A DNA stretch of 24,077 nt from Akkermansia sp. (lineage in GTDB: Bacteria; Verrucomicrobiota; Verrucomicrobiia; Verrucomicrobiales; Akkermansiaceae), in the NCBI GenBank assembly GCA_020047775.1, contig JAIFNK010000315.1, positions 1-24,077 of the forward strand, in the 5' to 3' direction. A program made the translations under genes and the position numbers. Shown piece after piece: positions 5,065 through 19,219 of the stretch (its first letter is position 1; every line of letters starts with the position of its first letter). The notes under the pieces are model-generated. The model saw nothing but the letters and a program-made list of their open reading frames with translations. It had not been told where the DNA came from and ran no database searches.

Positions 5065-5631
5065 ATGAGATTGAATTTAAACAGGTTAACCGCTATCGCG
5101 ACCTTGTGTGCGATAGTGTCGCTGGGGATATGGTTTTTCAGCAAACCGGCGCCGATTCGTTTCACCGCCAGCGGCCAGTTGCAGGACGGTCGGCACTATG
5201 CCGCCTCCTGTGAACTAGGCGCGATGTCGTCTTTCTCTCGATTGGGCGTCAAGACTTACTTGATCCGCTCGCTGGATCTCAAAATCGACGGGAATGCGCG
5301 GGCGGTCCCTGCGAATGCTCTGGATGGCATCACCGTTCATGATCCGAAGCAGCGCCTGCAAGTTTCCGAAGAAGGCCCGGTGGTGGTTCTTTCGATACGC
5401 GCAGGTGAAAATGAGCATCCGGTGCAATGGCGCTATCTCAATGGTTTTTTCGCCCAGCGACGCATCCTGGATGGCGAGAAAATCGCGATTCATAACGCGG
5501 ATGCCAAACTGCAAGCTCCTACCATGGTGAGCAATGTCTCTCCCGACGCGCCTCGACGCCTGGGTTCCCCATCTCTTCTTTCCAGCCCGGAAGAAACGCC
5601 GAGAACTCCTTTGAAAAACGGCCATGAATAG
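5065..5631 (+). CDS. Hypothetical membrane-anchored protein heading the Rhs cluster
   Basis: I do not recognise the family of this 188-residue protein. One hydrophobic segment at about 8-25 follows a short basic start and looks like an uncleaved signal anchor, which would leave most of the protein outside the membrane. The body has alternating hydrophobic stretches, such as VVVLSIRA, that suggest beta strands. The tail from about residue 155 is proline- and serine-rich and probably disordered. Its stop overlaps the start of the following Rhs gene by eight bases, so the two are likely translated together. It is the first gene of the long cluster. The start is an ATG without a clear Shine-Dalgarno sequence. 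Confidence 0.65.
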   Translation: MRLNLNRLTAIATLCAIVSLGIWFFSKPAPIRFTASGQLQDGRHYAASCELGAMSSFSRLGVKTYLIRSLDLKIDGNARAVPANALDGITVHDPKQRLQVSEEGPVVVLSIRAGENEHPVQWRYLNGFFAQRRILDGEKIAIHNADAKLQAPTMVSNVSPDAPRRLGSPSLLSSPEETPRTPLKNGHE

Positions 5632-8600
5632 ATCACTCGTTCCAATATTCGCCGCAGTTTTTACGTTGCTCATCGGCACGGCAGCCCGCACCTCAGCAGC
5701 GATTGATCTGCGGGGCTACGACGGACGCCCTACCGCCAATCCGACCTATTTCTTCGACGTGCAGCAGACCTCGGCCCGGTGGGGTGAGGTCATCGGGATC
5801 AAGTTCGCGGTCATCAACACCGGCACGACGCCATCCGGCACCTTTTCCGTCCGTCTCTATTTCTCCAAAAACAGCACTTTCGGGGATGCTGATGATATCA
5901 CTTGGGTGCCCGTTCCGAATTGGCCGAGCATGGGACAGAATGGCAAAAATGGATATGACACCTACCAGAATGTCAGCCTCCCCGCCAGCAATCCCTACGG
6001 CGACTCCAGCACTGTCTTCTACATCGGCATGATGGTAGATCCCACCAATGCCATCGCGGAATCCAACGAGGCGAACAACCGCAACGTGGCCAATGGAACT
6101 GACAAGGACGGCACCCCGATCACCATCACCGGACCTGCTCCCAAGATCCAGCTGGCGACCAGCAGCGCCACCCTGCCGCCCGCCGCGAGTCTTGCGATCG
6201 ATTTCGGAAACCTGGCAGCAGACGGTGCTGGAGGTGCGACCCTCACCCAAAGCGTTTCCCTGTCAAACACGGGAGATCTCTCCCTTTCCGCCACCGGCAT
6301 CTCCGTCAGCGGTGCGGGCTTTTCGATCAAGGACATCACCAGCAACATCCAGTCGCTCACCCAGCCAGTGACCTACCCGCGTGCGATCACGGCTCTGGGT
6401 CAGGAAACCTGGCTCATCAATGTCACCTTCGATCCCACCACCACCGGCTCACGCACCGGTGCGCTCGTCGTCACCAGCAACGACGCCACCCGGCCCTCGG
6501 TCTCCATTGCTCTCTCAGGAAATGGCCTGGCAGTCCCGCAGATGGCGGTAGGTTACGGCGCGCCTGCCGGGACGGATTCTCGTTCCGTGGATTTCGGAAA
6601 TGTCATCAACGACGGCACCGGAGCCGCCAAGGCTGATAAAACCGTCACTCTCGCGAATTCCGGCAGCGGCCCGCTCACCATCAGTCAGAACGGGCTGTCC
6701 TTGATCAATGGCACCGGCTGGCAGATCGTTTCCATCACCAGCAACACGCAAGGAGTGATCAATCTTGCCACCGCCGCCAGAACCATCGCCGCCGCCAGTG
6801 CGGAAACCTGGTCCATCATCGTCAGCTTCGATCCTGCCTCCGTGGCCAGTTTCTCCGGCGGCCTGCAAATTCTCTCCAACGATTCTACCAGCCCCACCTA
6901 CTCTCTGGCGCTCACGGGCAGCGGAGTGGTCCCCATGATGCTGGAAGTCAAGGACTCCATCGGCGTGGAAGCGGATCGGGCGATGAACTTCGGCTCCATT
7001 CACGCGGATGGCACCGGCCTTCAGCAAGTAGCCGCCACGGTCACTTTGAAAAACACCGGCGGCGCACCGCTCGTCATTTCCCAGAATGGCATCGCGCTCA
7101 CAGCCGCCACTCATTTCAAAATCACCTCCATTGTCAGCAGCTCTCAAGGCCCCATCAATCTATCCACCGGCACCGCCACGCTTGCCCTTGCCGGCGCGGA
7201 AACCTGGACGGTGAATCTCGCCTTCGATCCAACTACCGCAGGATCACTCTCCACCCAATTGCAAATCCTCAGCAACGATCCCGCTCAAGCCACGGTCTCC
7301 ATCGCCCTATCAGGCACCGGTCTCAGCCAACCCGGCATCGAAGCCACTGATTCATCCGGCCCCTCAAGCGACCGCGCCATCGACTTCGGTCCCACGCTCA
7401 ATGATGGGGCTGGCAATCGCACACGCAGCCACACTGTCACTTTGAAAAACATCGGCACCCAGCCGCTCGTCATTTCCCAGAACGGCGTGTCCGTCCTCAA
7501 TGGCGCGAGATTCAGCGTGCAAAGCATCATTTCCTCCACTCGCGGCGCGATCACCATTTCCTCAGCCTCCAGTACCGACCGCACCATCACCCCGCTAGGC
7601 GCGGAAATCTGGACCATCACCGCCGCCTTCGATCCGGATGCAAACTCGGCCTTCACCGGCACACTCCGCATCACCGGCAATGATTCGCTCCTCCCCACGC
7701 TCGACCACAGCCTCGCTGGCTCCGGCGTGCAGCCGGTCATCGCGCTCAACCCCACCGCCGCAGGCAGCACGCTTTTCATCCCCGCCTCCCAGCCACACTC
7801 CATCACCTGGACCGCCACCTACACTGGGGGTGATGCCGGAATCTCGCTCTACCGGGACACAGACACCAATCCCGCCAATGGCAACACCCTAATCGTCTCC
7901 AATCTTCCGCAATCCGCCGGTTCCCGCTACGATTGGACCCCGGACCCCGCGCTCGCCGGGCAGGAGTTTTACCTTTACGCCACGATTGCGGATGGCACGG
8001 TGATGTCCGGCAGCTACGCCGCACGCAAGGTCCGCATCGATGCCGTCGGCGCGTTCCAGCTCATCTCCGCCGTGCAGTCCGCCAGCACCGACTACGCCTG
8101 GCAGTATGAATACCTCGGGAAAATCTACACCGGCACCACCTCACTCGTTCCCGGGCAGAACCTCATCACCGTCACCACCCCGCTCACCGGCGGAGGGAAT
8201 GCCACCCACCAATTCACCGTGACCAAAGTGGAAACCCTGCTCCAAAGCGAAGCCTACACCTACGATGAAATGCAGCGCGTCAAAACCTTCCGTAACGGCA
8301 ATGGAATCACCACCACCTACACCTACGATCTCGCCGGGCGTCTCGAAAGCACCACTGCCACCAACGGAGCCACCGTCACCTTCACTTACGACACTCTCAG
8401 CCGCCGCACCTCCATGACCGACTCCACCGGCACCACTTTTTACGAATACGACGATCTCGACCGCCTCAGCAAGATCATCGTTTCCGACAACGCCACCAAG
8501 GGCGATGCCGACGACCTCCCGCTCCAATACGGCTACGATCTCGCCGGACACATCACCAGCATGACCTATCCCGGCGGCGAGCAAATCACCTACACCTACG

Positions 8601-9508
8601 ACGATGCCGGGCGCATGAAAACCGCCGTCAATGTCCAGCTCGCCCTCACCACCACCTACACCTACCATCCCACCAGCGGGCTTTTGCAAAACGCCGTCCG
8701 CTCGAATGGCCTCCGCACCGAGTATTCCTTCAACAACATGGGTCGCCTCAACCGCGTCAAACACATCAAAACCGCAGGCACAGTCACCCTCGGCGATTAC
8801 AACTACACCCTGAATCCCGCCGGAAACGCCACCGATCTCGTCATCACCCTTCCCAGCGGCGTGAAACGCGAGAGCTACCAATACGACGGTCTCGATCGCC
8901 TCGAAAAAGTCACCTACTCCACCGGCTCCGGCACCGATCCGAACGCCAAAGTCGTTACCTACACCTACAGCGGCGCGGGCAACCGCCTCACCGAAAAGAT
9001 CGAACTCGGCGGCAGCCTCCAGAAACTCTGGACCTACACCTACGGCAGCGAGAACCGCCTGCTATTTATCAAAGACCACACCGGCACCGAAGTCCGCCGC
9101 TACGTCTATGACACCGCCGGGAACCGCCTCCAGAAAATCACCCCGGAAGGCACCACCTTCTACGCCTATGATGAGCGGAACCTCCTCACCAGCGTCCGCA
9201 CCGAGACGGACACCATTTCCTACGCCTACAACGGCATCGGTCACCGCGTCCGCAAAACCCACAACGGCACCACCACCCGTTATATCATCGATCCCAATCG
9301 CCCCATCTACGAAACCGTCCAGGAACGCGGCACCTCCGGCATTAACGAAAGCTACACCTACGGCCTCGACCGCCTCATCCGCAAGCCCACCAGCGGTTCT
9401 ACCCAGTTCTACCTCCACGACCGCATCAGCTCCGTCCGCCTCATCACCGATTCCTCAGCGAACGTGACGGAAACAATCGGTTACGACGCCTTCGGAGCAC
9501 CACAGTAG
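5624..9508 (+). CDS. Secreted CARDB / choice-of-anchor D / Rhs-repeat protein, truncated in the Rhs core
   Basis: This is a large exported surface protein of 1294 residues. A signal peptide occupies about 1-26 (ends TSAA). A CARDB-like domain at about 35-165 has the marker AESNEANN. Four choice-of-anchor D (ASPM/SPD-2/Hydin-like) repeats of about 130 residues follow at 174-302, 303-435, 436-567 and 568-702. An Ig-like linker runs to about 865, then YD/Rhs repeats (EAYTYDEMQRVKTF onward) to the end. The protein stops at SSVRLITDSSANVTETIGYDAFGAPQ. In typical Rhs proteins that point is followed by the last part of the core (FxGxxxD-x-ETGLYYLRARYYDP...DPLG) and a variable toxin tip; both are missing. 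No reading frame after the stop restores them. No C-terminal sorting signal is present. The start overlaps the upstream gene by eight bases. Likely role: structural shell of an Rhs system, by inference. Confidence 0.85.
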   Translation: MNRSLVPIFAAVFTLLIGTAARTSAAIDLRGYDGRPTANPTYFFDVQQTSARWGEVIGIKFAVINTGTTPSGTFSVRLYFSKNSTFGDADDITWVPVPNWPSMGQNGKNGYDTYQNVSLPASNPYGDSSTVFYIGMMVDPTNAIAESNEANNRNVANGTDKDGTPITITGPAPKIQLATSSATLPPAASLAIDFGNLAADGAGGATLTQSVSLSNTGDLSLSATGISVSGAGFSIKDITSNIQSLTQPVTYPRAITALGQETWLINVTFDPTTTGSRTGALVVTSNDATRPSVSIALSGNGLAVPQMAVGYGAPAGTDSRSVDFGNVINDGTGAAKADKTVTLANSGSGPLTISQNGLSLINGTGWQIVSITSNTQGVINLATAARTIAAASAETWSIIVSFDPASVASFSGGLQILSNDSTSPTYSLALTGSGVVPMMLEVKDSIGVEADRAMNFGSIHADGTGLQQVAATVTLKNTGGAPLVISQNGIALTAATHFKITSIVSSSQGPINLSTGTATLALAGAETWTVNLAFDPTTAGSLSTQLQILSNDPAQATVSIALSGTGLSQPGIEATDSSGPSSDRAIDFGPTLNDGAGNRTRSHTVTLKNIGTQPLVISQNGVSVLNGARFSVQSIISSTRGAITISSASSTDRTITPLGAEIWTITAAFDPDANSAFTGTLRITGNDSLLPTLDHSLAGSGVQPVIALNPTAAGSTLFIPASQPHSITWTATYTGGDAGISLYRDTDTNPANGNTLIVSNLPQSAGSRYDWTPDPALAGQEFYLYATIADGTVMSGSYAARKVRIDAVGAFQLISAVQSASTDYAWQYEYLGKIYTGTTSLVPGQNLITVTTPLTGGGNATHQFTVTKVETLLQSEAYTYDEMQRVKTFRNGNGITTTYTYDLAGRLESTTATNGATVTFTYDTLSRRTSMTDSTGTTFYEYDDLDRLSKIIVSDNATKGDADDLPLQYGYDLAGHITSMTYPGGEQITYTYDDAGRMKTAVNVQLALTTTYTYHPTSGLLQNAVRSNGLRTEYSFNNMGRLNRVKHIKTAGTVTLGDYNYTLNPAGNATDLVITLPSGVKRESYQYDGLDRLEKVTYSTGSGTDPNAKVVTYTYSGAGNRLTEKIELGGSLQKLWTYTYGSENRLLFIKDHTGTEVRRYVYDTAGNRLQKITPEGTTFYAYDERNLLTSVRTETDTISYAYNGIGHRVRKTHNGTTTRYIIDPNRPIYETVQERGTSGINESYTYGLDRLIRKPTSGSTQFYLHDRISSVRLITDSSANVTETIGYDAFGAPQ
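6143..7729 (+). repeat. Four tandem choice-of-anchor D repeats inside the Rhs gene
   Basis: Four protein-level repeats occupy bases 6143-6529, 6530-6928, 6929-7324 and 7325-7729. Each has DFG or NFG near its start, then LxNxGxxPLxIS, a short central turn, ETWxxxxxFDP, and SNDxxxxxxSLxLxGxG at its end. Repeats 2 to 4 share ISQNG exactly. Such immunoglobulin-like domains usually form rigid stalks on secreted proteins. Confidence 0.8.
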
Positions 9509-9574: not shown

Positions 9575-9949
9575 ATGGCTGGAGCTATGCAAAGCGAATA
9601 TATCGTATCCAAGTTGATTGTAGATACTTGGTGGAGTTATGCGGAAGGCCGTAGCCTCGCTGTTTATCGAAAGTCAGACGGCAAATTCATTCCTTTGGGT
9701 TCCGTGCCCGATGCGGAAACGTCCGAGTACTTTTGGGAAGTTCGCCATCTGGGACATCAAGAGCCATATGTGATAGTGACGGCTGCTAGATTCTCCCAAG
9801 ATCCCGAAGAAAGTTGGATGATTTCCATTCATTGGATTTTCAAGGAAAAGGACAATGGTTCCGGGATCACGACCAAAAAAATAGCAACCGAAATACAAGA
9901 CATACTGCTTGCCTCGGGGGCTTTATGTAAATTTTGTCCAATAAGTTGA
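9575..9949 (+). CDS. Small cytosolic hypothetical protein, candidate immunity protein
   Basis: I do not recognise a family for this 124-residue protein. It lacks a signal peptide and membrane segment and is rich in aromatic residues (DTWWSYAEG, YFWEVRHLG, MISIHWIFK), so a small alpha/beta cytosolic fold is plausible. The gene is AT-richer than its upstream neighbour. It lies between the truncated Rhs gene (67-base gap) and the first tip-module gene (11-base gap). Immunity genes of Rhs toxins usually occupy this place directly after a toxin tip. It could therefore be the surviving immunity gene of the tip lost from the upstream Rhs protein. This is inference from position only. A second in-frame ATG at 9587 is an alternative start. 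Confidence 0.6.
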   Translation: MAGAMQSEYIVSKLIVDTWWSYAEGRSLAVYRKSDGKFIPLGSVPDAETSEYFWEVRHLGHQEPYVIVTAARFSQDPEESWMISIHWIFKEKDNGSGITTKKIATEIQDILLASGALCKFCPIS

Positions 9950-9960
9950 ACGTAAATATT

Positions 9961-11976
9961 ATGAACTATTTAACATTCATTTTCATCCAACTGTTTGTAT
10001 TTTCCGCCAACATTTTGGCGACTGAGTCGAACCGATTTTCGGGGGAGTCTTACAATGAAAATTGTGGCCTACTATTTCTGAGAAACCGAAGCCTGGATCC
10101 CGAAACAGGAACATTTACAGCTAGAGATCCAATTGGGATCAACGGTGGACTTAATACATATCAGTATTGCAGGAGCAATCCGGTAAACCATCAGGATCCA
10201 CTCGGGTTAGTAACTCCGCTAGACACCGCGCTGGCGGCGGTCGTTGGCGGTGGCGTTGGCCTAATTGCCCAAGGAGTCGGCGATCTCGTCTTTGACCGCC
10301 CTTTTCAATGGCAGAACTACGCCGCGTCTGCTGCTGGTGGTGCTACCACTGGAGCTCTGTTGGTCAACACATTTAATCCGCTTCTTGCAGGTGCCGCCGG
10401 AGGGGCTGTTGCAAACTCGATAAGACAGGGTACAAATCTGGCAACAGGACAGCAGCAAAGCTATAGCCCGACGAATCTTGCAACTGAAATGGCCGTGAGT
10501 GGAGTATTCACAATGGGAGGTTCGGCAATTGGCGCTGGCATAAGAAGCGGAGGAGGGACAACGACGATGACTATTGCTGCGACTTCAAGAAACGCGGCTC
10601 CTTTGTCGGGAAGTGGGGCTCCTTTTCACGTTGTCTATGCTGCCGGAGATGAGGCTGCGCACGCCGTAGGGCCCCAATTCTTCAGGATGGAAACTCGGCA
10701 GATGACAACCGAAGCATTCAGCAGTTACGCTAGCGCGTCATATGGCACACTCAGTTTACCGATTGCCACTGCGAATGCGGGTTTGGTGACTCAAGCAGGA
10801 CTTTCTGCCGCTAGTTGCGTAACCGGAGCAGCGAGTGCTTTTATACGAGGATGGTATAGTGCGACGGGATCAGCAGTTGGATACGGCATTGCAGCAGGCT
10901 TTCAATCCGGCGTTCTCATCGACAAAGCCGCCACGCTCATCGAGTCCAACCTCGCGGACATCAAGGGCGCGACTTACGATCCGGTTTCCAAGCAGATCAT
11001 CTTCCTCGGTAGCAACACCACGCCGGGTGTGGAGGGGATCGATATGGATTACTTCTACACGGCGGTGAACTCGGTGTATGGCAGTGCCGCGCCGCCATCC
11101 GTCTCGCTGGATGCGCCTGCTTCTGCCACTTCACTCTGGCAGGATTTCGGAGATGGGGATGGGGTGTTCGAGGCCACGGAATGGGGTGGTTGTTCGTTGC
11201 GTTACAATCCGCTTTGGAGCGAGGAGGATACTAACATTAAGGTGCGAATCAAATGCACGGTGGGCAGCACGAACTATGACTTTGCGGCAAACTTCGCCCC
11301 GCAGACGGTCGATTGGCTGCAATTTCCGAACGGTGAGTATCCCATGCACCTCGTCTTCATCGGCACTTCCGGCACCGCGCCGCCGGGCGTCGGCATCTGG
11401 GGGACGCCCTTCGCCTCGCTCGCGAATGGCGCGACGAATGTGCCTAACGTGAATACTAACCAAACCGTGAATGGCGGGCAGGACTGGACCTATCCGTTTC
11501 AAATCTACAACGGCGGCACTGCGACGATGACGAATTTCTCCTTCGCCGTGATCCCGGATCGCCAACATCGCCGCTTCGGCGGGCGGCTGGAGGACACCAA
11601 GCTCGGCTGGGTCTTGCAGGAAGCGGACCGCATCATGAAGTGCCTCGCCATCGGCAAGGACAACATCACCGGAGCGATTTACAGCAGTGCCACCATCCCG
11701 ATCAGCGGCTACAAGAATCTCGCGGAAATCAACGCGGCGGGGACCAGCGTGAGTGGCAACACCCGCGTCTGGTTCCTCGCGGAGGAAATGGCACTCAAGC
11801 GGCATGCGGATGCCGCCACCGGCCGGGCGACGATGGTTTTCGACCGCTCCATCGTCGGCGTGAAAACCGAATCCGCGCTCAATTTCCAAGCGCAAAGCCA
11901 CGGCGTGGGGGCCTTTGCCAGCCACTTGCAAACGAACTTCGATGCGTTTGAAAACCACACAATCAGAAATCTATGA
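9961..11976 (+). CDS. Secreted Rhs-core-end / variable-tip protein (split Rhs module 1)
   Basis: From the ATG at 9961 the protein has 671 residues. A TTG at 9934 inside the upstream gene is rejected because the ATG gives a clean signal peptide (1-20, ends NILA). Directly after it comes the end of an Rhs core: FSGESYNENCGLLFLRN, then DPETGTFTARDPIGINGG and the self-cleavage-type motif DPLG at 79-82. A glycine/alanine-rich hydrophobic stretch (88-195) resembles pre-toxin regions. A candidate tip domain at about 210-300 has HVVYAAGDEAAHAVG (H223, H234) and SCVTGAAS (C286), reminiscent of permuted papain-fold thiol enzymes. Residues 317-667 are the duplicated segment shared with the 13106 gene. 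The protein ends abruptly after this segment. The start follows the preceding stop by 11 bases, and the stop overlaps the next start (ATGA). The tip activity is unproven. Confidence 0.75.
   Translation: MNYLTFIFIQLFVFSANILATESNRFSGESYNENCGLLFLRNRSLDPETGTFTARDPIGINGGLNTYQYCRSNPVNHQDPLGLVTPLDTALAAVVGGGVGLIAQGVGDLVFDRPFQWQNYAASAAGGATTGALLVNTFNPLLAGAAGGAVANSIRQGTNLATGQQQSYSPTNLATEMAVSGVFTMGGSAIGAGIRSGGGTTTMTIAATSRNAAPLSGSGAPFHVVYAAGDEAAHAVGPQFFRMETRQMTTEAFSSYASASYGTLSLPIATANAGLVTQAGLSAASCVTGAASAFIRGWYSATGSAVGYGIAAGFQSGVLIDKAATLIESNLADIKGATYDPVSKQIIFLGSNTTPGVEGIDMDYFYTAVNSVYGSAAPPSVSLDAPASATSLWQDFGDGDGVFEATEWGGCSLRYNPLWSEEDTNIKVRIKCTVGSTNYDFAANFAPQTVDWLQFPNGEYPMHLVFIGTSGTAPPGVGIWGTPFASLANGATNVPNVNTNQTVNGGQDWTYPFQIYNGGTATMTNFSFAVIPDRQHRRFGGRLEDTKLGWVLQEADRIMKCLAIGKDNITGAIYSSATIPISGYKNLAEINAAGTSVSGNTRVWFLAEEMALKRHADAATGRATMVFDRSIVGVKTESALNFQAQSHGVGAFASHLQTNFDAFENHTIRNL
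10909..11960 (+). repeat. 1.05-kb direct repeat, copy A
   Basis: The segment aligns without any gap to 14039-15090 at a constant offset of 3130 bases. The encoded proteins differ at only about 24 of some 350 residues by eye. Copy A is GC-rich, while the sequence just upstream is AT-richer. It ends 16 bases before the stop of the 671-residue gene, at which point homology to copy B is lost. Confidence 0.9.
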
Positions 11977-13109
11977 AAAAATTAGTAATACTCACGCTGC
12001 TTCTGGCTCCTTGGAGCGACTTATATTCTCAGGAGCCTTCAACTTCTCCCAATGAGAAACAACCCGGAAACTACGATCCATCAAAGGTCGTCATCCTGCC
12101 CCATCCCGATCTCCCCCTCGATCCTACAAAAACCGTCATCTGGTGCGGCACTGTCCAGCTCGCGTGGAACGAGATGATCACCCAAATGGGCGGCAAGCCA
12201 AAGTTGGTGAAGCCCGTCAAGGAAGTGGACCTCTTGAATCAACAGGATTTCACCAAGGCGGATCTGGACGAAGCGAGCTACTTCGTCACCAGCGGCATGG
12301 GAGGCGACGATTTAACAAAAAGAATCAACGAGGGAATATCAAAGAAATTTCCAGACATTAAGGACTTCAGGTCGAGGCTGACGGTTGACTCCGGCACACC
12401 TGAGAATTCCATCTCTTCATATGCGTTCTTGCGGAAGAATCTCTCCTTTGAAAAACCATTCTATTCCAACCCGTCTAACGCTAAGAAATTTAACTTTAGG
12501 CAAGAACGCGGCGGCTCATGGGGAGATATCGCATATCGTCATTTTGGACTTAGCCCATTCGCGCTTTCGATTGATGATCAAAACTTAGTCGATTCGAATA
12601 CTTACTCTCAGGCCCAAATTCTTCATTACGTCTCTCAAGATGAGTGCGTGGTGGAACTAAAAACAAAGGATCCTAATGAAGAATTGATTCTGGCGAGCAT
12701 TGAGCCAAGAAAGACGCTCAAAGAAACAAGCGAGTTTGTTCTTAATCTCATAAGTGGTGCAAAGCCTACCAAACTTTCAGAAATTGATACACTCGATATT
12801 CCAGTAATTGATGTTGACGTGATTCACGCCTTCTCAAGTCTAGCAAACCACCGATTGCTCAAGAATCCAACAGGCTCTCTCGGCGCAACCGAACAGGTGG
12901 TCAGATTTTCCCTTACAGAGATCGGAGTAGAATTAACCTCGGAAGCTCAAATGGTTAGTTATGCATCAAATGCACCGCATGAAGGACCCAGAATAGTAAA
13001 TGCGGTATTTGATCAACCGTTTCTCCTCATCATAAAGCGTCGAGAATCGAAAGTTCCGTATCTTGCATGCTGGATTGGAAACACAGAAACATTCAAAGCG
13101 ATCAAATGA
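11973..13109 (+). CDS. Secreted hypothetical protein with serpin-like C-terminus
   Basis: This 378-residue protein has a signal peptide at about 1-20 (LTLLLAPWSDLYSQ). Residues 54-130 contain VIWCGTVQLAWNEM, a pattern I recall from secreted planctomycete/verrucomicrobial proteins of unknown function. The C-terminal third resembles serpins: LDIPVIDVDVIHAFSSL (about 274-290), then FSLTEIGVELTSEAQM (312-327, similar to the reactive-loop hinge) and VFDQPFLLIIKRRES (345-359, similar to the serpin FxxxRPFLFxI strand). A protease-inhibitor role is possible but unproven; some hinge residues are not the small ones active serpins need. Base composition shifts near 12300 from GC-rich to AT-rich, so the gene may be mosaic. 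Both ends overlap their neighbours as ATGA, so it is probably translated with the Rhs modules on each side. Confidence 0.7.
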   Translation: MKKLVILTLLLAPWSDLYSQEPSTSPNEKQPGNYDPSKVVILPHPDLPLDPTKTVIWCGTVQLAWNEMITQMGGKPKLVKPVKEVDLLNQQDFTKADLDEASYFVTSGMGGDDLTKRINEGISKKFPDIKDFRSRLTVDSGTPENSISSYAFLRKNLSFEKPFYSNPSNAKKFNFRQERGGSWGDIAYRHFGLSPFALSIDDQNLVDSNTYSQAQILHYVSQDECVVELKTKDPNEELILASIEPRKTLKETSEFVLNLISGAKPTKLSEIDTLDIPVIDVDVIHAFSSLANHRLLKNPTGSLGATEQVVRFSLTEIGVELTSEAQMVSYASNAPHEGPRIVNAVFDQPFLLIIKRRESKVPYLACWIGNTETFKAIK

Positions 13110-16100
13110 GGAAGAAATTCACTGCGGTAGTCAGCCTGGTATCGGTGGTTATATTTTTGGATCCACAGCAAGTAATTGCCTCCATTGGCTTCAATGGTGA
13201 GGAAACAGATGATCGGACAGATCTCATAAATCTGCGGGCTAGATATTACGATTTTGAAACAGGAACTTTCATTACACGCGATCCGAGCGGTATTGCTGGT
13301 GGTTTGAATACATATCAATTTGCGCTTTCAAATGCGATTAATAATATAGATCCTCTTGGCGATAAGCCGATTCCAGTAATTATTTTGAACGGTGAAGCTA
13401 AAGCCGCCGTCAATAGCTCAGCTACAGGAGAGCACTTTAAGAAGGCGGGATCATATCTTGAGAATAACAGTGGATTTCAAGCTATTGTGCTCACCAAAGG
13501 TCAAGGAATCGATGCCGCGGCAGCTGCTCTTGCAAAATACAAAAATGAATCAGGAAATACTGTTTCATTCTTGGGAGTCTTGGATCATGGTAATCCTGGT
13601 AGACAGTCGCTTGGGGCGAGTGAAATCACCTCCGCAAATGTCGCTAAACTTACCAGCCTGACACAAAACAATGCTGTTTTCTGTGCTTTAGGTTGTAACG
13701 TAGGTGCCTCAACGCCCAGTAAAACCCAATTGGGTGCAACAAACCCGACAGGGGCTACATATCTTCAGAGTCTTGCGACTGCAGCAAATCGAACGGTTCT
13801 GGCAAACACCGGAACTACAGGTGTAAATGTCGCTACGGGAGAGCTATACTTTAATATAAAACCTGGAGGTAATTCACTGCTTAGAGCGCCCGACGGAGCT
13901 TCCGTAGCTTACGGCCCGAAAGGAAGTCCACCGTCATTGACCGGCGTCCCAAAAGGGATCGCAGTTCCTACAGGTAAGGAAACTGGTTACTACAACCCAT
14001 TCAGCAATTTCGACCTGTATGCTTCAAATGACTTCGGAGGCGTCCTCATCGACAAAGCTGCCACGCTCATCGAGTCGAACCTCGCGGACATCAAGGGCGC
14101 GACCTACGATCCGGTTTCCAAGCAGATCATCTTCCTCGGCAGCAATGCCACGCCGGGGGTGGAGGGGATCGATATGGATTACTTCTACACGGCGGTGAAC
14201 TCGGTCTATGGCAGCGCCGCGCCGCCTGCGATTTCGCTGGATGCTCCGGCTGCCGCCGCCTCGCTGTGGCAGGACTTCGGCGATGGGGACGGGGTGTTCG
14301 AGGCCAATGAGTGGGGTGGCTTCTCCCTGCGCTACAATCCGCTGTGGAGCTTGGAGGACACCAACATCAAGGTGCGAATCAAATGCACGGTGGGCAGCAC
14401 GAACTATGACTTTTCGGCAAACTTCCAGCCGCAGACGGTCGATTGGCTGCAATTTCCCAACGGCCAGTTTCCGATGCATCTGGTCTTCATCGGCACCTCC
14501 GGCACCGCGCCGCCGGGCATCGGCGTCTGGGGGACGCCCTTCGCATCGCTCGCCTATGGCGCGACGACGGTGCCTAACGTGAATACTAATCAAACCATCA
14601 ATGGCGGGCAGGACTGGACCTATCCGTTTCAAATCTACAACGGCGGCACGGCGACGATGACGAATTTCTCCTTCGCCGTGATCCCGAACCGCCAGCACCG
14701 GCGCTTCGGCGGGCGGCTGGAGGACACCAAGCTCGGCTGGGTCTTGCAAGAGGCGGACCGCATCATGAAGTGCCTGGCCATCGGCAAGGATAACATCACC
14801 GGCGCGACTTACAGCAGCGCGACCATCCCGATCAGCGGTTACAAAAACCTCGCAGAAATCAACGCGGCGGGTACCAGCGTGAGCGGCAACACCCGCGTCT
14901 GGTTCCTCGCGGAGGAAATGGCACTCAAGCGCCATGCGGACGCCGCCAGCGGTCGGGCGACGATGGTGTTCGACCGCTCCATTGTCGGGGTCAAAACGGA
15001 ATCCGCCCTCAATTTCCAAGCGCAAAGCCCCGGCGTGGCGGCGTTTGCGAGCCACTTGCAAACGAACTTCGATGCGTTTGCGAACCGCACGTTCTCCGTC
15101 GTTTCCCCCGACGATCCCAGCGGGCAGACGATCATCAACGTGAAGATTTTCAAGATGCTCAAGGACGCGATGCAGGCGGTCTCACTGGCGCGTTTCCTGC
15201 GGGACAACAACATCCCGCTGGACACTTGGTGGATGAATTCCTGGCAAGCACCGGTGGCCTACTCGGCAGTGAGCGTGCCGACGATCACCAATGAAACACT
15301 CGGCATCGTACTCTACGGCGGCGTGGACAATCGCAAGGTGAATGCCTACACCCCATCGACCAGCGCCCAGAGCGTAGGAACCACCATCGCCACCACCCGG
15401 CCGAATGCGGCGGTGAATCCCACGGAGGACATCAAGCAGCAGGCATGGATGGCCAGCACCACGGAAGGGACCTTGAAAGCGGTGGCCGCCTCGCTCAAAT
15501 CATCGGGAGCAGGGCAAGGGACGATCAATCTGGCAGAGACGGATCTTTCCTTCGCCAGTCCGGGGGCGCTGCCGCTGGAATTCACCCGCTACTATCAGAG
15601 CGGCTACGTCGGAGCGTCTGATCTGGGACCGGGCTGGCGGGTGGGGAGATATGTCTTGGAATTCGAGCGGCCGTCATGGTCAGACGAAAACAACATGATG
15701 CGGTATGGCACCCAACTCGTCGCCCGCGATGATCGAAGCGATACCCGGCTGCGCTCCGGGGCCGTGAGGCTGGTGGACCTAGCATCCGGCGCGACGCTGG
15801 ATTTCAACTCCACCCTGAGCGTGAGCTACTATCAGACGGCAACCGGCACTCCGGCGGTGGCGCTGGCGGGACTGAGCGTGGAGCAACTGCCGGTTTTCAA
15901 TCCCGGCCAGCGCAAGGACGGCACGGTGTTGGTACAGAATGATGATGGCGTGCTCGGCTACAGCGCCTATCTGCCGGATGGCTCGGTGCTGGTATTCGAT
16001 CCCGAGGGACGCTTGGAAATCACCCAGGATCGCCACGGCTACGGGCAGTGGTATTTCCGGGATGGCCAAGCACGCGTGACCACGATCCAAGACTCTGCCA

Positions 16101-18058
16101 ACCGCACGCTCACTCTCGCCTACCATCCCACCAGCGGCAAACTCACCTCCGTCACCGGTCCACAAAACGAGCGTGCGAACTACAGCTACAATGCCGCAGG
16201 GCAACTCGAAGCCGTCACCCACCAGCGCAGCGGAGCCGCCCTCGCACGCTATACCTACAATACGGATGATCAATTGCTGGACGTGAAACGCATGGACGGC
16301 ACCACGGTGGTGACGAGCACGCCCGACATCAAGGGCCGCTCCGACGAACGCATGGACGTGCGCGACAACAACTTCGACTACACCTACACTCAGAACGAGA
16401 CCACCGGCACCCACACCACGCAGGTCCAGGATGATGCCTCATCACTCGGCCCCTCCGAACAAATCACCGATGACAAGGGCCGCACCACGAGTGTTTCCGA
16501 TCCGCTCGACAACCAGGTCGTCCTCGGCTACACGGGTGACTCGCGCTCGCCAAACTCCGTGCAACTTCCCACGCCGAATCGTCCGGCCATCAGTATCCAG
16601 AGAAACACCAAGGAGCAGCCCACAATCATCACCGATCCTGCCGTTCCCGGAGCCGCGCCGATTCAGATCGCCTACAATACGGCAAACCGAGTGACCCAAG
16701 TGACCGACGAGGCCGGACGCGCCATCGAGGCGGACTATGATACGGAGCAGAATCTTGAAACCGTCCGCCGCTTTCTGGGAGCCACGCCCGTGGAGGTGGG
16801 CTACGGCTATCTGAACGGCTATCTCAGAACTCTCACAGATCCACTCGATAAAACATGGACCACCAACCGGGACACTTACGGCAGGGTGACAAGCATCGTC
16901 GATCCGACGAATATCACGTTGGGTCTGGAATATGATCCGCTCGGCAGACTCTGGCGCATCACCGATCCAAGGCTATCCAGCCCGATCACCTATACCTTCG
17001 ATGATCTTGATCGAATCCTCACCATCACGACTCCAGCAGGCGTTACGACATATGCCTACGATCCCGTCACCAAATGGCTCTCATCCATCACCGATGTGCA
17101 GAACCGCACCGTCAATTTCACCCATGACCCCGCCAGCGGCGACATCACGAAGTCCAGCTACACCATGGCGCTTTCCGGCGGTGGAACGAAGACACTGGAG
17201 ACGAACTATAGCTTCGCACGCTTCGGCGATCTGGAAACAGTGGCCGCACCCGAATCCACACCTGTCAGTTTCGATGTCGATGATCTTGGCAGGGGGATCG
17301 GCTCGAATGAAACAGATGCAGGGCTTTATGATTCTCCGCGAGGATTTGTCAGCAACAACGCACAAGACGGAATCTGGACCAATGTCAGAAACCATACCTT
17401 CACCTGGGGCGCACCGGAAAGCGCGTCACCCGTGGATGGCTACAGCTTCGCCAAAGACGCCACAGCTACGGAAACCGTCACCACAACCGCGCCCACCGCC
17501 ACTTGGAACAACGTCGGTGACGGGCAGCACACCGCGCGTGTCCGGGCGAAAAACACCACTGGTTTCTGGGGGCCGGAGGCGGCGTTCAGCCTCAAAGTGG
17601 ACGGAACATTTCCAACGATCAGCAATATTACCGCCACGCCCAATCCCATCCCACAAAGTCCGGGTGTGGTGACCATTTCCGCAACGGCCTACGATCAGGA
17701 AAGCGGCCTCGTCTCCGGCTACCCACAGATCCGCTGGTGTGTGAGTGCGGACGCATCGCGAAACTGGAACTCCTATACGAGTATGGCTTCTACTGGCGGA
17801 ACTGGCTGGACAAAGGCGATTTCCCAAAACGGGGCGCAAGCAGCAGGGCAGGTTTTTTACTATGAAATTCTGGCAAACGACCTTGCCGGAAACTCCTTTG
17901 TCAGCAGTGGATCCGTGGCGATGACCTATACCGACGGAGGAGGAGCGGGAGTGCCCGTGATGTCGCCCGGTTGGATGGCCGCGCTCGTGGGCATGCTCTT
18001 GTGGGTGGCTGGGCGATTTCTCCCTCAGAAACAACGTCGTGACCAGCCCGTGACATGA
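13106..18058 (+). CDS. Giant secreted Rhs protein with caspase-like domain and C-terminal sorting signal (split Rhs module 2)
   Basis: The start at 13106 (ATGA overlap with the upstream stop) gives 1650 residues; the upstream in-frame start at 13067 would hide the signal peptide. Order: signal peptide 1-25; Rhs-core end (LRARYYDFETGTFITRDPSG, DPLG at 82-85); a tip-like domain about 90-245 with FLGVLDHGNPG (H161) and VFCALGCNVG (C197), the His/Cys layout of clan CD (caspase/gingipain/DUF4347-like) peptidases; linker; duplicated segment 312-661; helical region; Rhs wall-protein domain from about 820 (RYYQSGYVGASDLGPGW); YD repeats about 970-1400; two Ig/Fn3-like domains to about 1610; and a C-terminal tail of motif VPVMSPGW (1616-1623), a hydrophobic helix and a basic end. 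That tail fits an IPTL/PEP-CTERM-like exosortase signal, and the exosortase gene overlaps this stop. Probable role: cell-surface or secreted Rhs effector or adhesin. The proteolytic activity is inferred only. Confidence 0.85.
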   Translation: MRKKFTAVVSLVSVVIFLDPQQVIASIGFNGEETDDRTDLINLRARYYDFETGTFITRDPSGIAGGLNTYQFALSNAINNIDPLGDKPIPVIILNGEAKAAVNSSATGEHFKKAGSYLENNSGFQAIVLTKGQGIDAAAAALAKYKNESGNTVSFLGVLDHGNPGRQSLGASEITSANVAKLTSLTQNNAVFCALGCNVGASTPSKTQLGATNPTGATYLQSLATAANRTVLANTGTTGVNVATGELYFNIKPGGNSLLRAPDGASVAYGPKGSPPSLTGVPKGIAVPTGKETGYYNPFSNFDLYASNDFGGVLIDKAATLIESNLADIKGATYDPVSKQIIFLGSNATPGVEGIDMDYFYTAVNSVYGSAAPPAISLDAPAAAASLWQDFGDGDGVFEANEWGGFSLRYNPLWSLEDTNIKVRIKCTVGSTNYDFSANFQPQTVDWLQFPNGQFPMHLVFIGTSGTAPPGIGVWGTPFASLAYGATTVPNVNTNQTINGGQDWTYPFQIYNGGTATMTNFSFAVIPNRQHRRFGGRLEDTKLGWVLQEADRIMKCLAIGKDNITGATYSSATIPISGYKNLAEINAAGTSVSGNTRVWFLAEEMALKRHADAASGRATMVFDRSIVGVKTESALNFQAQSPGVAAFASHLQTNFDAFANRTFSVVSPDDPSGQTIINVKIFKMLKDAMQAVSLARFLRDNNIPLDTWWMNSWQAPVAYSAVSVPTITNETLGIVLYGGVDNRKVNAYTPSTSAQSVGTTIATTRPNAAVNPTEDIKQQAWMASTTEGTLKAVAASLKSSGAGQGTINLAETDLSFASPGALPLEFTRYYQSGYVGASDLGPGWRVGRYVLEFERPSWSDENNMMRYGTQLVARDDRSDTRLRSGAVRLVDLASGATLDFNSTLSVSYYQTATGTPAVALAGLSVEQLPVFNPGQRKDGTVLVQNDDGVLGYSAYLPDGSVLVFDPEGRLEITQDRHGYGQWYFRDGQARVTTIQDSANRTLTLAYHPTSGKLTSVTGPQNERANYSYNAAGQLEAVTHQRSGAALARYTYNTDDQLLDVKRMDGTTVVTSTPDIKGRSDERMDVRDNNFDYTYTQNETTGTHTTQVQDDASSLGPSEQITDDKGRTTSVSDPLDNQVVLGYTGDSRSPNSVQLPTPNRPAISIQRNTKEQPTIITDPAVPGAAPIQIAYNTANRVTQVTDEAGRAIEADYDTEQNLETVRRFLGATPVEVGYGYLNGYLRTLTDPLDKTWTTNRDTYGRVTSIVDPTNITLGLEYDPLGRLWRITDPRLSSPITYTFDDLDRILTITTPAGVTTYAYDPVTKWLSSITDVQNRTVNFTHDPASGDITKSSYTMALSGGGTKTLETNYSFARFGDLETVAAPESTPVSFDVDDLGRGIGSNETDAGLYDSPRGFVSNNAQDGIWTNVRNHTFTWGAPESASPVDGYSFAKDATATETVTTTAPTATWNNVGDGQHTARVRAKNTTGFWGPEAAFSLKVDGTFPTISNITATPNPIPQSPGVVTISATAYDQESGLVSGYPQIRWCVSADASRNWNSYTSMASTGGTGWTKAISQNGAQAAGQVFYYEILANDLAGNSFVSSGSVAMTYTDGGGAGVPVMSPGWMAALVGMLLWVAGRFLPQKQRRDQPVT
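14039..15090 (+). repeat. 1.05-kb direct repeat, copy B
   Basis: This is the counterpart of 10909-11960, gap-free at an offset of 3130 bases. It begins at GGCGTCCTCATCGACAAAGC, exactly where the AT-richer tip region ends. In this copy the reading frame continues into a large Rhs body, so copy B looks like the intact context and copy A like a truncated duplicate. Confidence 0.9.
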
Positions 18059-18621
18059 GCACTGCAATCCCGAGTCACACCGTTTCGGGCATCCGCCGCT
18101 GGTGGTGCGAATGGTATGAAGTAAAGAAGCCATTTCTGGTTTATGTGAGCAGATTTCTCGGAGTGATTTCACTTTTGTATGCCTTCTCGCTATTTTCAAT
18201 CTACCAGAATTTTCTCGCGGGTGCCGCAGTCGTCTATGCGGGGATCGCCCATGGATTGATTCACGCGCTCGGCGAAGATGGCATCCGTGACGGAGCCACG
18301 TTGCTGTCAGGACCGGATGCGATACTCACGGTAAAACCCTTTTGCACGGCCTTCGACTATTCATGGTTTCTCATCGCTGCGATTTTGGCGTTTCCGGCAC
18401 GATTCCGTCAAAAACTGCTGGGACTCGTCATCGGCGTGCCGTTACTGCTGGCTCTCAATGTCCTGAGAATTTCCAGCTTGTATTGGACGGGCATCAAATT
18501 TCCCTGGAATTTCGGGTTCATGCACGAGCAGTTTTGGGCTGTTCTTTTGAATTTCACAACGATCTGCTGCGCGGTCTTTTGGATGATGTGGATCAAACGG
18601 ACGAATCGAGATGAAAATTAG
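18055..18621 (+). CDS. xrtH: Exosortase H-like membrane transpeptidase
   Basis: Exosortases cleave C-terminal sorting signals of exported proteins at the membrane and release or transfer the substrate. This 188-residue protein is of the short exosortase type with about four to five hydrophobic segments. The catalytic triad is visible: C97 in VKPFCTAFDYSW, R138 in LNVLRISSLYW and H157 in FGFMHEQFWAVLL. The spacing LNVLRI-x-SL...FxHEQxW is what I associate with exosortase H, whose targets carry IPTLxxWG-like tails. The upstream Rhs protein ends with a related VPVMSPGW tail. The start overlaps that gene's stop (ATGA), and the stop overlaps the next gene by 11 bases, so the three are likely one translational unit. 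The subclass assignment is from memory of motifs and is less sure than the exosortase call. Confidence 0.85.
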   Translation: MSTAIPSHTVSGIRRWWCEWYEVKKPFLVYVSRFLGVISLLYAFSLFSIYQNFLAGAAVVYAGIAHGLIHALGEDGIRDGATLLSGPDAILTVKPFCTAFDYSWFLIAAILAFPARFRQKLLGLVIGVPLLLALNVLRISSLYWTGIKFPWNFGFMHEQFWAVLLNFTTICCAVFWMMWIKRTNRDEN

Positions 18622-19219
18622 ACTGCCGACTCATCCAGGATTGCGCTTTCTGGTGTGCTTCGCGTTTTGGCAGGTCGCTGGATTGATCGTCCTTTCATCT
18701 GCCGACGGGATTTATAACGAAATCTTCAGATCCGTCGGGGCATGGGTCTATGGCAGAAATGACCGGGTGAAAGAGATCGGTTTTGAGAATCTGAAGCGGG
18801 GTGATCATTTGAATTACACCCGTGTCGTCATCGTGAATCCCGCCCTGATGAATCCGGATGGCTCCGGACCCGTGCGGAACCTGGACATTGGCACCAGAGG
18901 TTTCGGCAGCATATCGCTTGCATTGCTGGCTGGACTGATTTTTGCATCGCCGGTATCATGGTCGCGTCGTGGCAAGGCCCTGCTATGGGGGGTCTTCTGG
19001 CATCAGATTTTGGTTTTTGGGACATTGGGTTATTGCATTTGGCTCGATTCCGCAGAGGTCGGGCTTGTGAACCTGACGGCAGGCGGCAAGGAGTTGGCGA
19101 CTGGCATCAAAAATGTCCAAGCCGGGGCATTGGCCGTTGCGGTTCCTGTCGTGTTGTGGGTTTTGGTGATATTGCGTGCCGGAGACTTGGGTTCAAACAG
19201 AAGCAACGGACTTGGCTGA
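18611..19219 (+). CDS. Exosortase-associated membrane protein
   Basis: The 202-residue protein has hydrophobic segments at about 12-30, 97-113, 122-145 and 168-188, and a polar, probably periplasmic loop at 31-95. It has no recognisable catalytic motif. It starts 11 bases inside the exosortase gene, and exosortase H genes commonly have a partner membrane protein in this position; LDIGTRGFGSISLALLAG looks like the conserved part of that partner. A helper role in substrate presentation or exosortase stability is inferred from this context. It is the last gene of the Rhs cluster. A weak stem (19285-19297) with six T residues (19301-19306) lies downstream. Confidence 0.7.
   Translation: MKIRLPTHPGLRFLVCFAFWQVAGLIVLSSADGIYNEIFRSVGAWVYGRNDRVKEIGFENLKRGDHLNYTRVVIVNPALMNPDGSGPVRNLDIGTRGFGSISLALLAGLIFASPVSWSRRGKALLWGVFWHQILVFGTLGYCIWLDSAEVGLVNLTAGGKELATGIKNVQAGALAVAVPVVLWVLVILRAGDLGSNRSNGLG

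What the first reader, a model, noticed from the sequence alone, without database searches (positions are those of the whole stretch)
13106..19219. Rhs protein with its own exosortase: a dedicated surface-sorting system
The 1650-residue Rhs protein ends in VPVMSPGW, a hydrophobic helix and a basic tail. Its stop codon overlaps the start of a short exosortase with an intact Cys97/Arg138/His157 triad, and that gene overlaps a partner membrane protein. This is a one-target, one-enzyme layout. Exosortases are mainly known for sorting many PEP-CTERM or IPTL-CTERM proteins; coupling one to a giant Rhs protein with a toxin-like domain would be a new way to display or release Rhs effectors.
Basis: partly seen in the sequence, partly recalled or inferred. 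Interest (0 to 1): 0.82.

Follow-up and report, generated by a model that had tools for sequence, protein, structure and literature searches.

The report
Dedicated exosortase for split Rhs protein
A bacterial operon carries a two-part, toxin-like surface protein together with what looks like its own private enzyme for cutting and sorting that protein at the membrane, a combination that could tell us how such proteins are displayed by bacteria with two membranes.

Summary
A 1650-aa Rhs protein (13106-18058) ends in VPVMSPGW + hydrophobic helix + basic tail, and overlaps a 188-aa exosortase (triad C97/R138/H157) that overlaps a membrane partner. The enzyme belongs to the exosortase superfamily, nearest XrtH but below its cut-off. 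The tail passes no PEP-, IPTL- or VPAMP-CTERM cut-off.

"One target, one enzyme" is supported, not proven. A four-sequence tail profile finds one tail in the (57% complete) own genome, two in G303 (two enzyme-partner pairs) and one strong hit in G246 (one pair). The layout is not specific to Rhs: elsewhere the same pair sits behind glucoamylase-like, RCC1, DUF11-repeat or trypsin-like proteins. It is a modular cargo-exosortase-partner cassette.

The Rhs cargo is itself unusual. It is the second half of a two-gene Rhs: gene A (5624-9508) stops just before the terminal Rhs core domain, which instead starts gene B behind its own leader. Fused homologues exist. A variable, polymorphic-toxin-like domain lies inside B, and a truncated spare module lies upstream. 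Cleavage, display and toxicity are inferred. I call it a new variant of a known kind.

The parts
5065..5631 (+). 188-aa protein with an N-terminal hydrophobic segment, first gene of the run, overlaps gene A by 8 nt; function unknown
   Evidence: ORF; no Pfam hit; no PADLOC hit
5624..9508 (+). Rhs gene A: hydrophobic leader, CARDB and Ig/ASH-like domains, RHS repeats; stops at ...YDAFGAPQ just before the Rhs-associated core domain
   Evidence: Pfam; 44% identical to the first half of fused P0059, A 8-1292 to 15-1283; same end point in the G810 copy (...DAFGVKQ); no core remnant found between 9505 and 9934
9575..9949 (+). 124-aa protein without an obvious leader in front of the spare module; candidate immunity gene (inference)
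   Evidence: ORF; no Pfam hit; no PADLOC hit
9934..11976 (+). Spare (truncated) module: leader + Rhs core + different variable domain + first 350 aa of B's conserved region; true start may lie downstream of the listed TTG
   Evidence: TIGR03696 64.2 bits; 93% aa identity to B 325-675
10909..11960 (+). 1052-nt direct repeat, copy 1
   Evidence: 90.5% identical to 14039-15090, no gaps; dN/dS 0.096 over 350 codons
11973..13109 (+). 378-aa protein with a hydrophobic leader, overlaps both neighbours by 4 nt; candidate immunity or accessory gene (inference)
   Evidence: ORF; no Pfam or NCBIfam family above cut-off
13106..18058 (+). Rhs gene B (1650 aa): leader, Rhs core, variable domain, conserved region, DUF6531 + RHS repeats, Ig-like region, sorting tail
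13172..13360 (+). Rhs-associated core domain at the N-terminus of B
   Evidence: TIGR03696 66.4 bits, residues 36-98 of the 13067 reading
13358..14038 (+). Variable domain of B; weak DUF4347 match with HG and C motifs
   Evidence: PF14252 23.7 bits, cut-off 24.6; differs between homologues
14039..15090 (+). 1052-nt direct repeat, copy 2, start of B's conserved region
17951..18055 (+). C-terminal sorting tail VPVMSPGW + hydrophobic helix + basic end
18055..18621 (+). Short exosortase, XrtH-like, C97/R138/H157
18611..19219 (+). Partner: membrane protein with a conserved TRVVIVN...DGSGPVRNLD beta segment between long helices
   Evidence: 28 proteins incl. own; alignment A3; model pLDDT 82.2, pTM 0.73; no PDB match at E<=0.001

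Best explanation
This is a Rhs-loaded version of a modular cargo-exosortase-partner cassette. Genes A and B are the two halves of a giant two-Rhs, polymorphic-toxin-type surface protein. Both are exported by Sec (inferred from hydrophobic leaders). The Rhs core at the start of B probably closes the Rhs shell of A in trans. B is held in the inner membrane by its C-terminal helix until its own exosortase cuts near VPVMSPGW and passes it, with the partner's help, to an envelope carrier or releases it. The variable domain in the middle of B is the working domain and can be exchanged for the one in the truncated upstream module by recombination in the 1-kb repeat. Shown here by sequence: gene layout, superfamily membership, the triad, one strong tail hit per short exosortase in the three genomes that supplied the tails, the split and the fused homologues, the variable domain, the repeat. 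Inferred: cleavage, anchoring or release, A-B assembly, toxicity, switching, the role of the partner.
For: Enzyme: exosortase superfamily with invariant triad. Tail: one in own genome, two in G303 and one strong hit in G246, each in the gene directly in front of a short exosortase (with 28, 29). Pairing: in 7 of 8 partner loci read the exosortase is next to the partner. Exosortase and partner identity matrices correlate (10 pairs, Mantel r 0.95, p 0.0001). Rhs-partner linkage: 4 of 15 Rhs relatives share source and exact contig length with a partner relative, one of the four also with an exosortase relative. Split: A and B align to consecutive parts of fused P0059 and P0060, and the same split lies in G810. 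Variable domain: 7 of 9 homologues reaching the core lack a BLAST match across it, with Ntox10 in P0054 above cut-off. Repeat and constraint.
Against: The own genome is only 57% complete, so more tails may be missing. The tail profile rests on four sequences taken from these same genomes and did not cover G810. In G744, which has the exosortase-partner pair (L008), it finds nothing better than E 0.27; the protein in front there has a VPEPG tail. In G745 it rings at three places at E<=0.02. One partner locus (L007) has no exosortase beside it, and L077 has an exosortase beside its probable target without a partner. Tails of the more distant Rhs relatives (P0052-P0056) drift to other motifs, and P0057 has none. 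11 of 15 Rhs relatives could not be tied to a partner, and only one of 15 to an exosortase. The canonical PxxxxDPxGL autocleavage motif is altered in B (4 of 13 sequences keep it). No signal-peptide program was run and no chemistry was tested.
Confidence: 0.6

Rival explanations
1. The short exosortase is a general XrtH/IPTL-type enzyme with several targets, and its place behind B is only where the gene happened to settle.
For: Best NCBIfam match is XrtH (65.8 bits), and the G246 tail scores 19.5 against IPTL-CTERM (cut-off 20.5). In G745 the tail profile rings at three places at E<=0.02.
Against: No further tail in the own genome at E<=10 with the tail profile and no IPTL match over cut-off. 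In G303 and G246 each strong tail hit lies directly in front of a short exosortase.
Confidence: 0.15
2. B is an adhesin or structural surface protein, not a toxin; the variable domain serves recognition, and the exosortase anchors a teneurin-like shell. (Overlaps with the best explanation on sorting; differs on function.)
For: Several cargo proteins of sister cassettes carry repeat, Ig-like or enzyme domains rather than toxins. The window's variable domain is DUF4347-like rather than a named toxin. The autocleavage motif is altered.
Against: Variable domain between conserved flanks, Ntox10 in P0054, a spare truncated module and small genes in front of each module fit polymorphic toxins better.
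Confidence: 0.25
3. The A/B split and the truncated module are decay products: the locus is a pseudogene array and the exosortase is a passenger.
For: The G810 copy of B is interrupted, and the spare module is truncated.
Against: A stops at the same spot in G810 as in the window, and the B relatives P0047-P0054 (8 of 8) start with a hydrophobic leader by eye. dN/dS is 0.096 over the repeat. B is open over 1650 codons and every junction but A to the 124-aa gene overlaps.
Confidence: 0.08

Closest known systems
XrtH / IPTL-CTERM exosortase system (NCBIfam TIGR04177, TIGR04174; also midcut-by-XrtH NF033207)
   Same: Short exosortase; XrtH is the best NCBIfam hit of the window's enzyme and of the 7 related ones scanned. 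One of the two G303 tails and the G246 tail match IPTL at 13.9 and 19.5 bits (cut-off 20.5); all three G303/G246 tails match midcut-by-XrtH weakly
   Different: These 8 enzymes all fall below the XrtH cut-off of 86; the window tail has no reported IPTL match; one strong tail per short enzyme where scanned; partner matches no Pfam or NCBIfam model
VPAMP-CTERM (TIGR04513)
   Same: Only reported family match of the window tail, VPxM(S)P pattern
   Different: 13.8 bits against a cut-off of 32, so not a member by that model
Dedicated sorting systems as described for rhombosortase/GlyGly-CTERM (PMC3237569, passages read)
   Same: One enzyme, one target, neighbouring genes
   Different: Different enzyme superfamily; Rhs cargo; extra partner gene
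S. suis WapA with cognate SrtB and SecF-like protein (PMC12704120, passages read)
   Same: Sec-exported polymorphic Rhs protein with two Rhs regions beside its own cysteine sorting enzyme
   Different: Gram-positive, sortase B of an unrelated superfamily, interacting region at the N-terminal part, single chain, toxin at the C-terminus; the authors say anchoring by SrtB is not yet confirmed
TcB/TcC and T6SS Rhs effectors (PMC8765631, passages read)
   Same: Rhs shell ended by an aspartyl-autoprotease core; in TcB/TcC the shell is made by two chains
   Different: No PAAR or TcB/SpvB-type domain among the Pfam hits of A and B; variable domain is internal and followed by about 1300 aa and a sorting tail

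Membership tests
Exosortase/archaeosortase superfamily | TIGR04178 above cut-off | tested here: met
   44.1 bits, cut-off 23
Exosortase/archaeosortase superfamily | Pfam PF09721 (Exosortase_EpsH) above cut-off | tested here: not met
   Not among the hits of the window enzyme at E<=1, although the database lists PF09721 for most relatives, e.g. P0001, 99% identical
Exosortase/archaeosortase superfamily | Cys, Arg, His triad | tested here: met
   C97, R138, H157 invariant in 13 of 13 and 11 of 11
Exosortase/archaeosortase superfamily | Cuts a C-terminal sorting signal | not testable with these tools
   needs experiment
XrtH | TIGR04177 above cut-off | tested here: not met
   65.8 bits, cut-off 86
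XrtH / IPTL-CTERM | Targets carry IPTL-CTERM | tested here: not met
   No reported match of the window tail at E<=10; none over cut-off in own genome
PEP-CTERM | TIGR02595 match of the tail | tested here: not met
   No reported match of the tail; the 8 PEP-CTERM tails over cut-off lie on other contigs
VPAMP-CTERM | TIGR04513 above cut-off | tested here: not met
   13.8 bits, cut-off 32
Dedicated sorting system | Single target in the genome, adjacent to the enzyme | tested here: inconclusive
   One tail in the 3.06 Mb assembled, but the genome is 57% complete
Rhs protein | Rhs-associated core and RHS repeats | tested here: met
   TIGR03696 66.4 bits, cut-off 32.5; PF05593 56.2 bits, cut-off 22
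Rhs protein | PxxxxDPxGL autocleavage motif | tested here: not met
   B reads AINNIDPLGD; motif kept in 4 of 13 sequences looked at
Polymorphic toxin | Variable domain beside conserved carrier | tested here: met
   7 of 9 homologues reaching the core lack a BLAST match across B's variable region
Polymorphic toxin | Variable domain at the C-terminus | tested here: not met
   About 1300 conserved residues follow
Polymorphic toxin | Known toxin family in the window's copy | tested here: not met
   Only DUF4347 23.7 bits, cut-off 24.6; Ntox10 above cut-off only in P0054
Polymorphic toxin | Adjacent immunity gene | tested here: inconclusive
   124-, 378- and 255-aa genes sit in front of the modules but match no Pfam family above cut-off and are not similar to each other
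T6SS Rhs effector / Tc toxin | PAAR or TcB-type N-terminal domains | tested here: not met
   None among Pfam hits of A and B

The most novel reading that the evidence does not exclude
In a diderm bacterium a two-chain Rhs polymorphic toxin is displayed on, or released from, the surface by a private exosortase and membrane partner: A's Rhs shell is closed in trans by the core of B, B is sorted by its C-terminal tail, and the internal toxin cassette is swapped by recombination with spare modules. The same exosortase-partner cassette is re-used with other giant or enzymatic cargo.
Probability: 0.35. Interest if true: 0.82.

Novelty: new variant of a known kind. Interest (0 to 1): 0.62.

Why it matters
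How Gram-negative bacteria without obvious injection machines present giant Rhs proteins is open (my view, not from a call). A private exosortase would be a Gram-negative parallel to the WapA-SrtB pairing and would make that question testable in one operon. The cassette also offers small one-enzyme, one-substrate units, two of them in one genome in two cases (G303, G810), in which exosortase specificity could be worked out without dozens of competing substrates. The split at the Rhs core offers a natural two-chain version of a shell, as in TcB/TcC but cut at another place (the exact place in Tc is recalled).

Tried and rejected
Rejected: (1) chance adjacency, because the pair recurs in other families; (2) a standard PEP-CTERM or IPTL-CTERM system, because the tail and enzyme miss those cut-offs; (3) an Rhs-specific layout, because sister cassettes carry other cargo; (4) a plasmid- or virus-borne module: no plasmid match for the exosortase and no viral contigs match with the exosortase or with B's C-terminal part; (5) a known defence system: no PADLOC match in 7 proteins, gene A not among them.

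Led nowhere: PDB sequence search with exosortase and partner and with the variable domain (only E 0.04 or worse). The partner model is good but has no PDB fold match at E<=0.001. The model of the variable domain is poor (pLDDT 44), so I did not search with it. Genome samples found few relatives: partner 3 of 386 (order), 1 of 387 (phylum), 2 of 68 (G303's family), exosortase 2 of 195 (family, the second at E 5e-4), B's C-terminal part 2 of 384 (class) (own genome counted except). Searches scored at most 7 first-look candidates in the genomes listed and at most 5, so misses are possible, scoring up to 45, found the same two genomes of that family. The scan of genome contigs with the partner gave 2 loci.

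Papers: I saw listings and passages of PMC3237569, PMC12704120, PMC8765631, PMC3482391, PMC1569441, PMC4960237 and PMC8416519, none in full. Haft et al. 2012 (PMC3256604) was not held. That no paper joins an exosortase to an Rhs protein rests only, in an open-licence library, from listings. PMC4960237 holds both words, but the passages shown do not join them; PMC8416519 also holds both, and the passages shown concern archaea. PMC3482391 has 0 mentions of sortase or PEP-CTERM in the held part of its text.
Full report
WHAT IS THERE. Between genes that look by eye like PAPS reductase and cysteine synthase lies a run of eight plus-strand genes: 188 aa (5065-5631), Rhs A (5624-9508), 124 aa (9575-9949), a truncated Rhs-core protein (9934-11976), 378 aa (11973-13109), Rhs B (13106-18058), exosortase (18055-18621) and partner (18611-19219). 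With these starts all junctions overlap except A to the 124-aa gene (66 nt). The window is one whole contig of a genome bin of 3.06 Mb, 57% complete.

THE ENZYME. The 188-aa protein passes the superfamily model TIGR04178 (44.1 bits, cut-off 23). Its best subfamily is XrtH at 65.8 bits, below the cut-off of 86. Pfam's PF09721 did not appear for it, although the database lists that domain for most of its relatives. Seven related enzymes tested (five next to partners in other loci, plus P0004 and P0006) also have XrtH first (50.5 to 81.7 bits) and miss the cut-off. C97, R138 and H157 are invariant. The protein database gave 16 proteins, the window's own and 8 close relatives (49-85% identical) among them.

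THE PARTNER. It gave 28 proteins including its own, matches no Pfam or NCBIfam model at E<=1, and carries an invariant RVVIVN segment and G-GPVRN. The predicted model (pLDDT 82.2, pTM 0.73) has long helices and three strands. The best Foldseek E-value is 0.59. Its role is unknown; a substrate-presenting or carrier-side subunit is a guess.

ONE TARGET PER ENZYME. The own genome also has two exosortases of the large kind, cut by contig ends, and eight PEP-CTERM tails over the cut-off, VPEPS and similar. A profile of four tails (A4) finds one place in the own genome at E<=10, namely B. In G303 it finds two places, the proteins in front of its two short exosortases. In G246 the only strong hit (E 5e-17) is the protein in front of its one short exosortase, with three weak hits at E 0.34-0.63. 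In G744 there are only weak hits (E 0.27 or worse), and in G745 three at E<=0.02 and one at 1.0. G303 and G246 hold six and four exosortases in all. The profile was built from the tails of G000, G303 and G246, so finding those is by construction; the information is in what else is not found.

NOT RHS-SPECIFIC. The partner occurs at eight loci that I could read, and the exosortase is next to it at seven (window, L008, L013, L014, L015, L050, L078). At L007 it stands alone. L050 and L078 were found through the Rhs search and the exosortase count of G810, not through the partner search. Cargo in front: Rhs B (window, L050), DUF11/YDG repeats (L013, L015), glucoamylase-like PF10091 (L014), a trypsin-like protein just under the Pfam cut-offs (25.8 bits, cut-off 27.6) with a VPEPG tail (L008, 14.3 bits against PEP-CTERM, cut-off 16), and RCC1 repeats (L078). 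In L077 (genome G745) an Ig-domain protein with an APGMPLW tail converges with an exosortase that has no partner beside it.

TREES. Exosortase and partner identities across ten pairs correlate (r 0.95, Mantel p 0.0001); three of the ten pairs were joined only by equal contig length. G810's two short enzymes do not group together: its Rhs-linked one joins the window's clade (support 0.965; partners 0.917). The two DUF11-linked enzymes of G303 and G246 are closer (67%) than the two enzymes within G303 (48%). So enzyme lineage seems to follow cargo rather than host genome, on a small sample.

THE RHS CARGO IS SPLIT. A ends at YDAFGAPQ. tblastn finds the Rhs core at 10036-10209 and 13166-13375 (E 7e-14 or better) and otherwise only chance hits (E 1.1 or worse), none between A's stop and 9934. 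B and the 680-aa protein each start with a hydrophobic leader and then the core. P0059 and P0060 are single chains of 2805 and 2863 aa in which A aligns to the first part (15-1283 in P0059) and B to the second (1292-2741). G810 has the same split, with A ending at DAFGVKQ, a 255-aa gene, then B; that B copy is interrupted. Fused P0059 and P0060 end without a tail of this kind.

THE VARIABLE DOMAIN. A stretch from residue 98 to about 318 of B (13067 reading) lies between conserved blocks. Of nine homologues that reach the core (P0047-P0054 and the G810 copy), P0048 has the same domain (81%), seven have no match across it, and P0053 is bridged by one alignment although its letters look different. 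P0054 carries Ntox10 (27.2 bits, cut-off 26.8; P0052 reaches 24.1), a family listed for Verrucomicrobia with RHS in PMC3482391 (passages). The window's domain matches DUF4347 just below cut-off. Its HG and C motifs recall caspase-like folds, but that is my reading, and the model was too poor to test it.

THE SPARE MODULE. 10909-11960 and 14039-15090 are 90.5% identical without gaps. Over 350 codons dS is 0.37 and dN 0.036, so the copies diverged under constraint, either here or in another strain before transfer. Recombination in this repeat would move the upstream variable domain onto the full B. That is an inference; I saw no rearranged genome.

LINKAGE IN RELATIVES. One search gave 18 proteins: the window's own (P0045), 15 Rhs relatives (P0046-P0060) and two non-Rhs ones left out (P0061, P0062). 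Of the 15, four share source and exact contig length with a partner relative, one of them also with an exosortase relative. This is indirect. The other 11 could not be tied. The tails of P0052-P0056 depart from the VPxM pattern and P0057 has no such tail.

MECHANISM. The exosortase model proposed in PMC1569441 (passages) is a tail held in the inner membrane, attack by the cysteine, and transfer. Applied here, B would be cut near VPVMSPGW by its own enzyme. A, whose shell lacks its closing core, could ride with B. B's core lacks the strict autocleavage motif (4 of 13 sequences have it), so a stable, teneurin-like connection is possible in this copy.

VERDICT. The dedicated-enzyme idea is supported within the limits of an incomplete genome. 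Rhs is one cargo of a modular cassette, and this cargo is a split, polymorphic Rhs. New variant of a known kind.

Noticed in passing
window 5624-9508 and 13106-18058; L050: Rhs protein split into two genes exactly before the Rhs core, with fused relatives P0059 and P0060.
   Followed up: partly
window 10909-11960 and 14039-15090: 1052-nt direct repeat, 90.5% identical, that could swap the variable domains.
   Followed up: partly
L007 9884-10507: Partner protein alone beside genes that look by eye like a polysaccharide-export cluster, without an exosortase next to it.
   Followed up: partly
L077 2290-5917: Ig-domain protein with an APGMPLW tail and an exosortase in convergent orientation, no partner nearby.
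   Followed up: partly
L008: Record is titled Akkermansia muciniphila, but the genome behind it (G744) is reported as 7.9 Mb, large for that species (recalled), so the title looks wrong.
   Followed up: no
L050 4314-9451: The G810 copy of Rhs B is interrupted; a real break or an assembly error cannot be told.
   Followed up: no
window 18055-18621: Pfam PF09721 is listed for the 99% identical P0001 but was not reported for the window enzyme by the Pfam scan.
   Followed up: no
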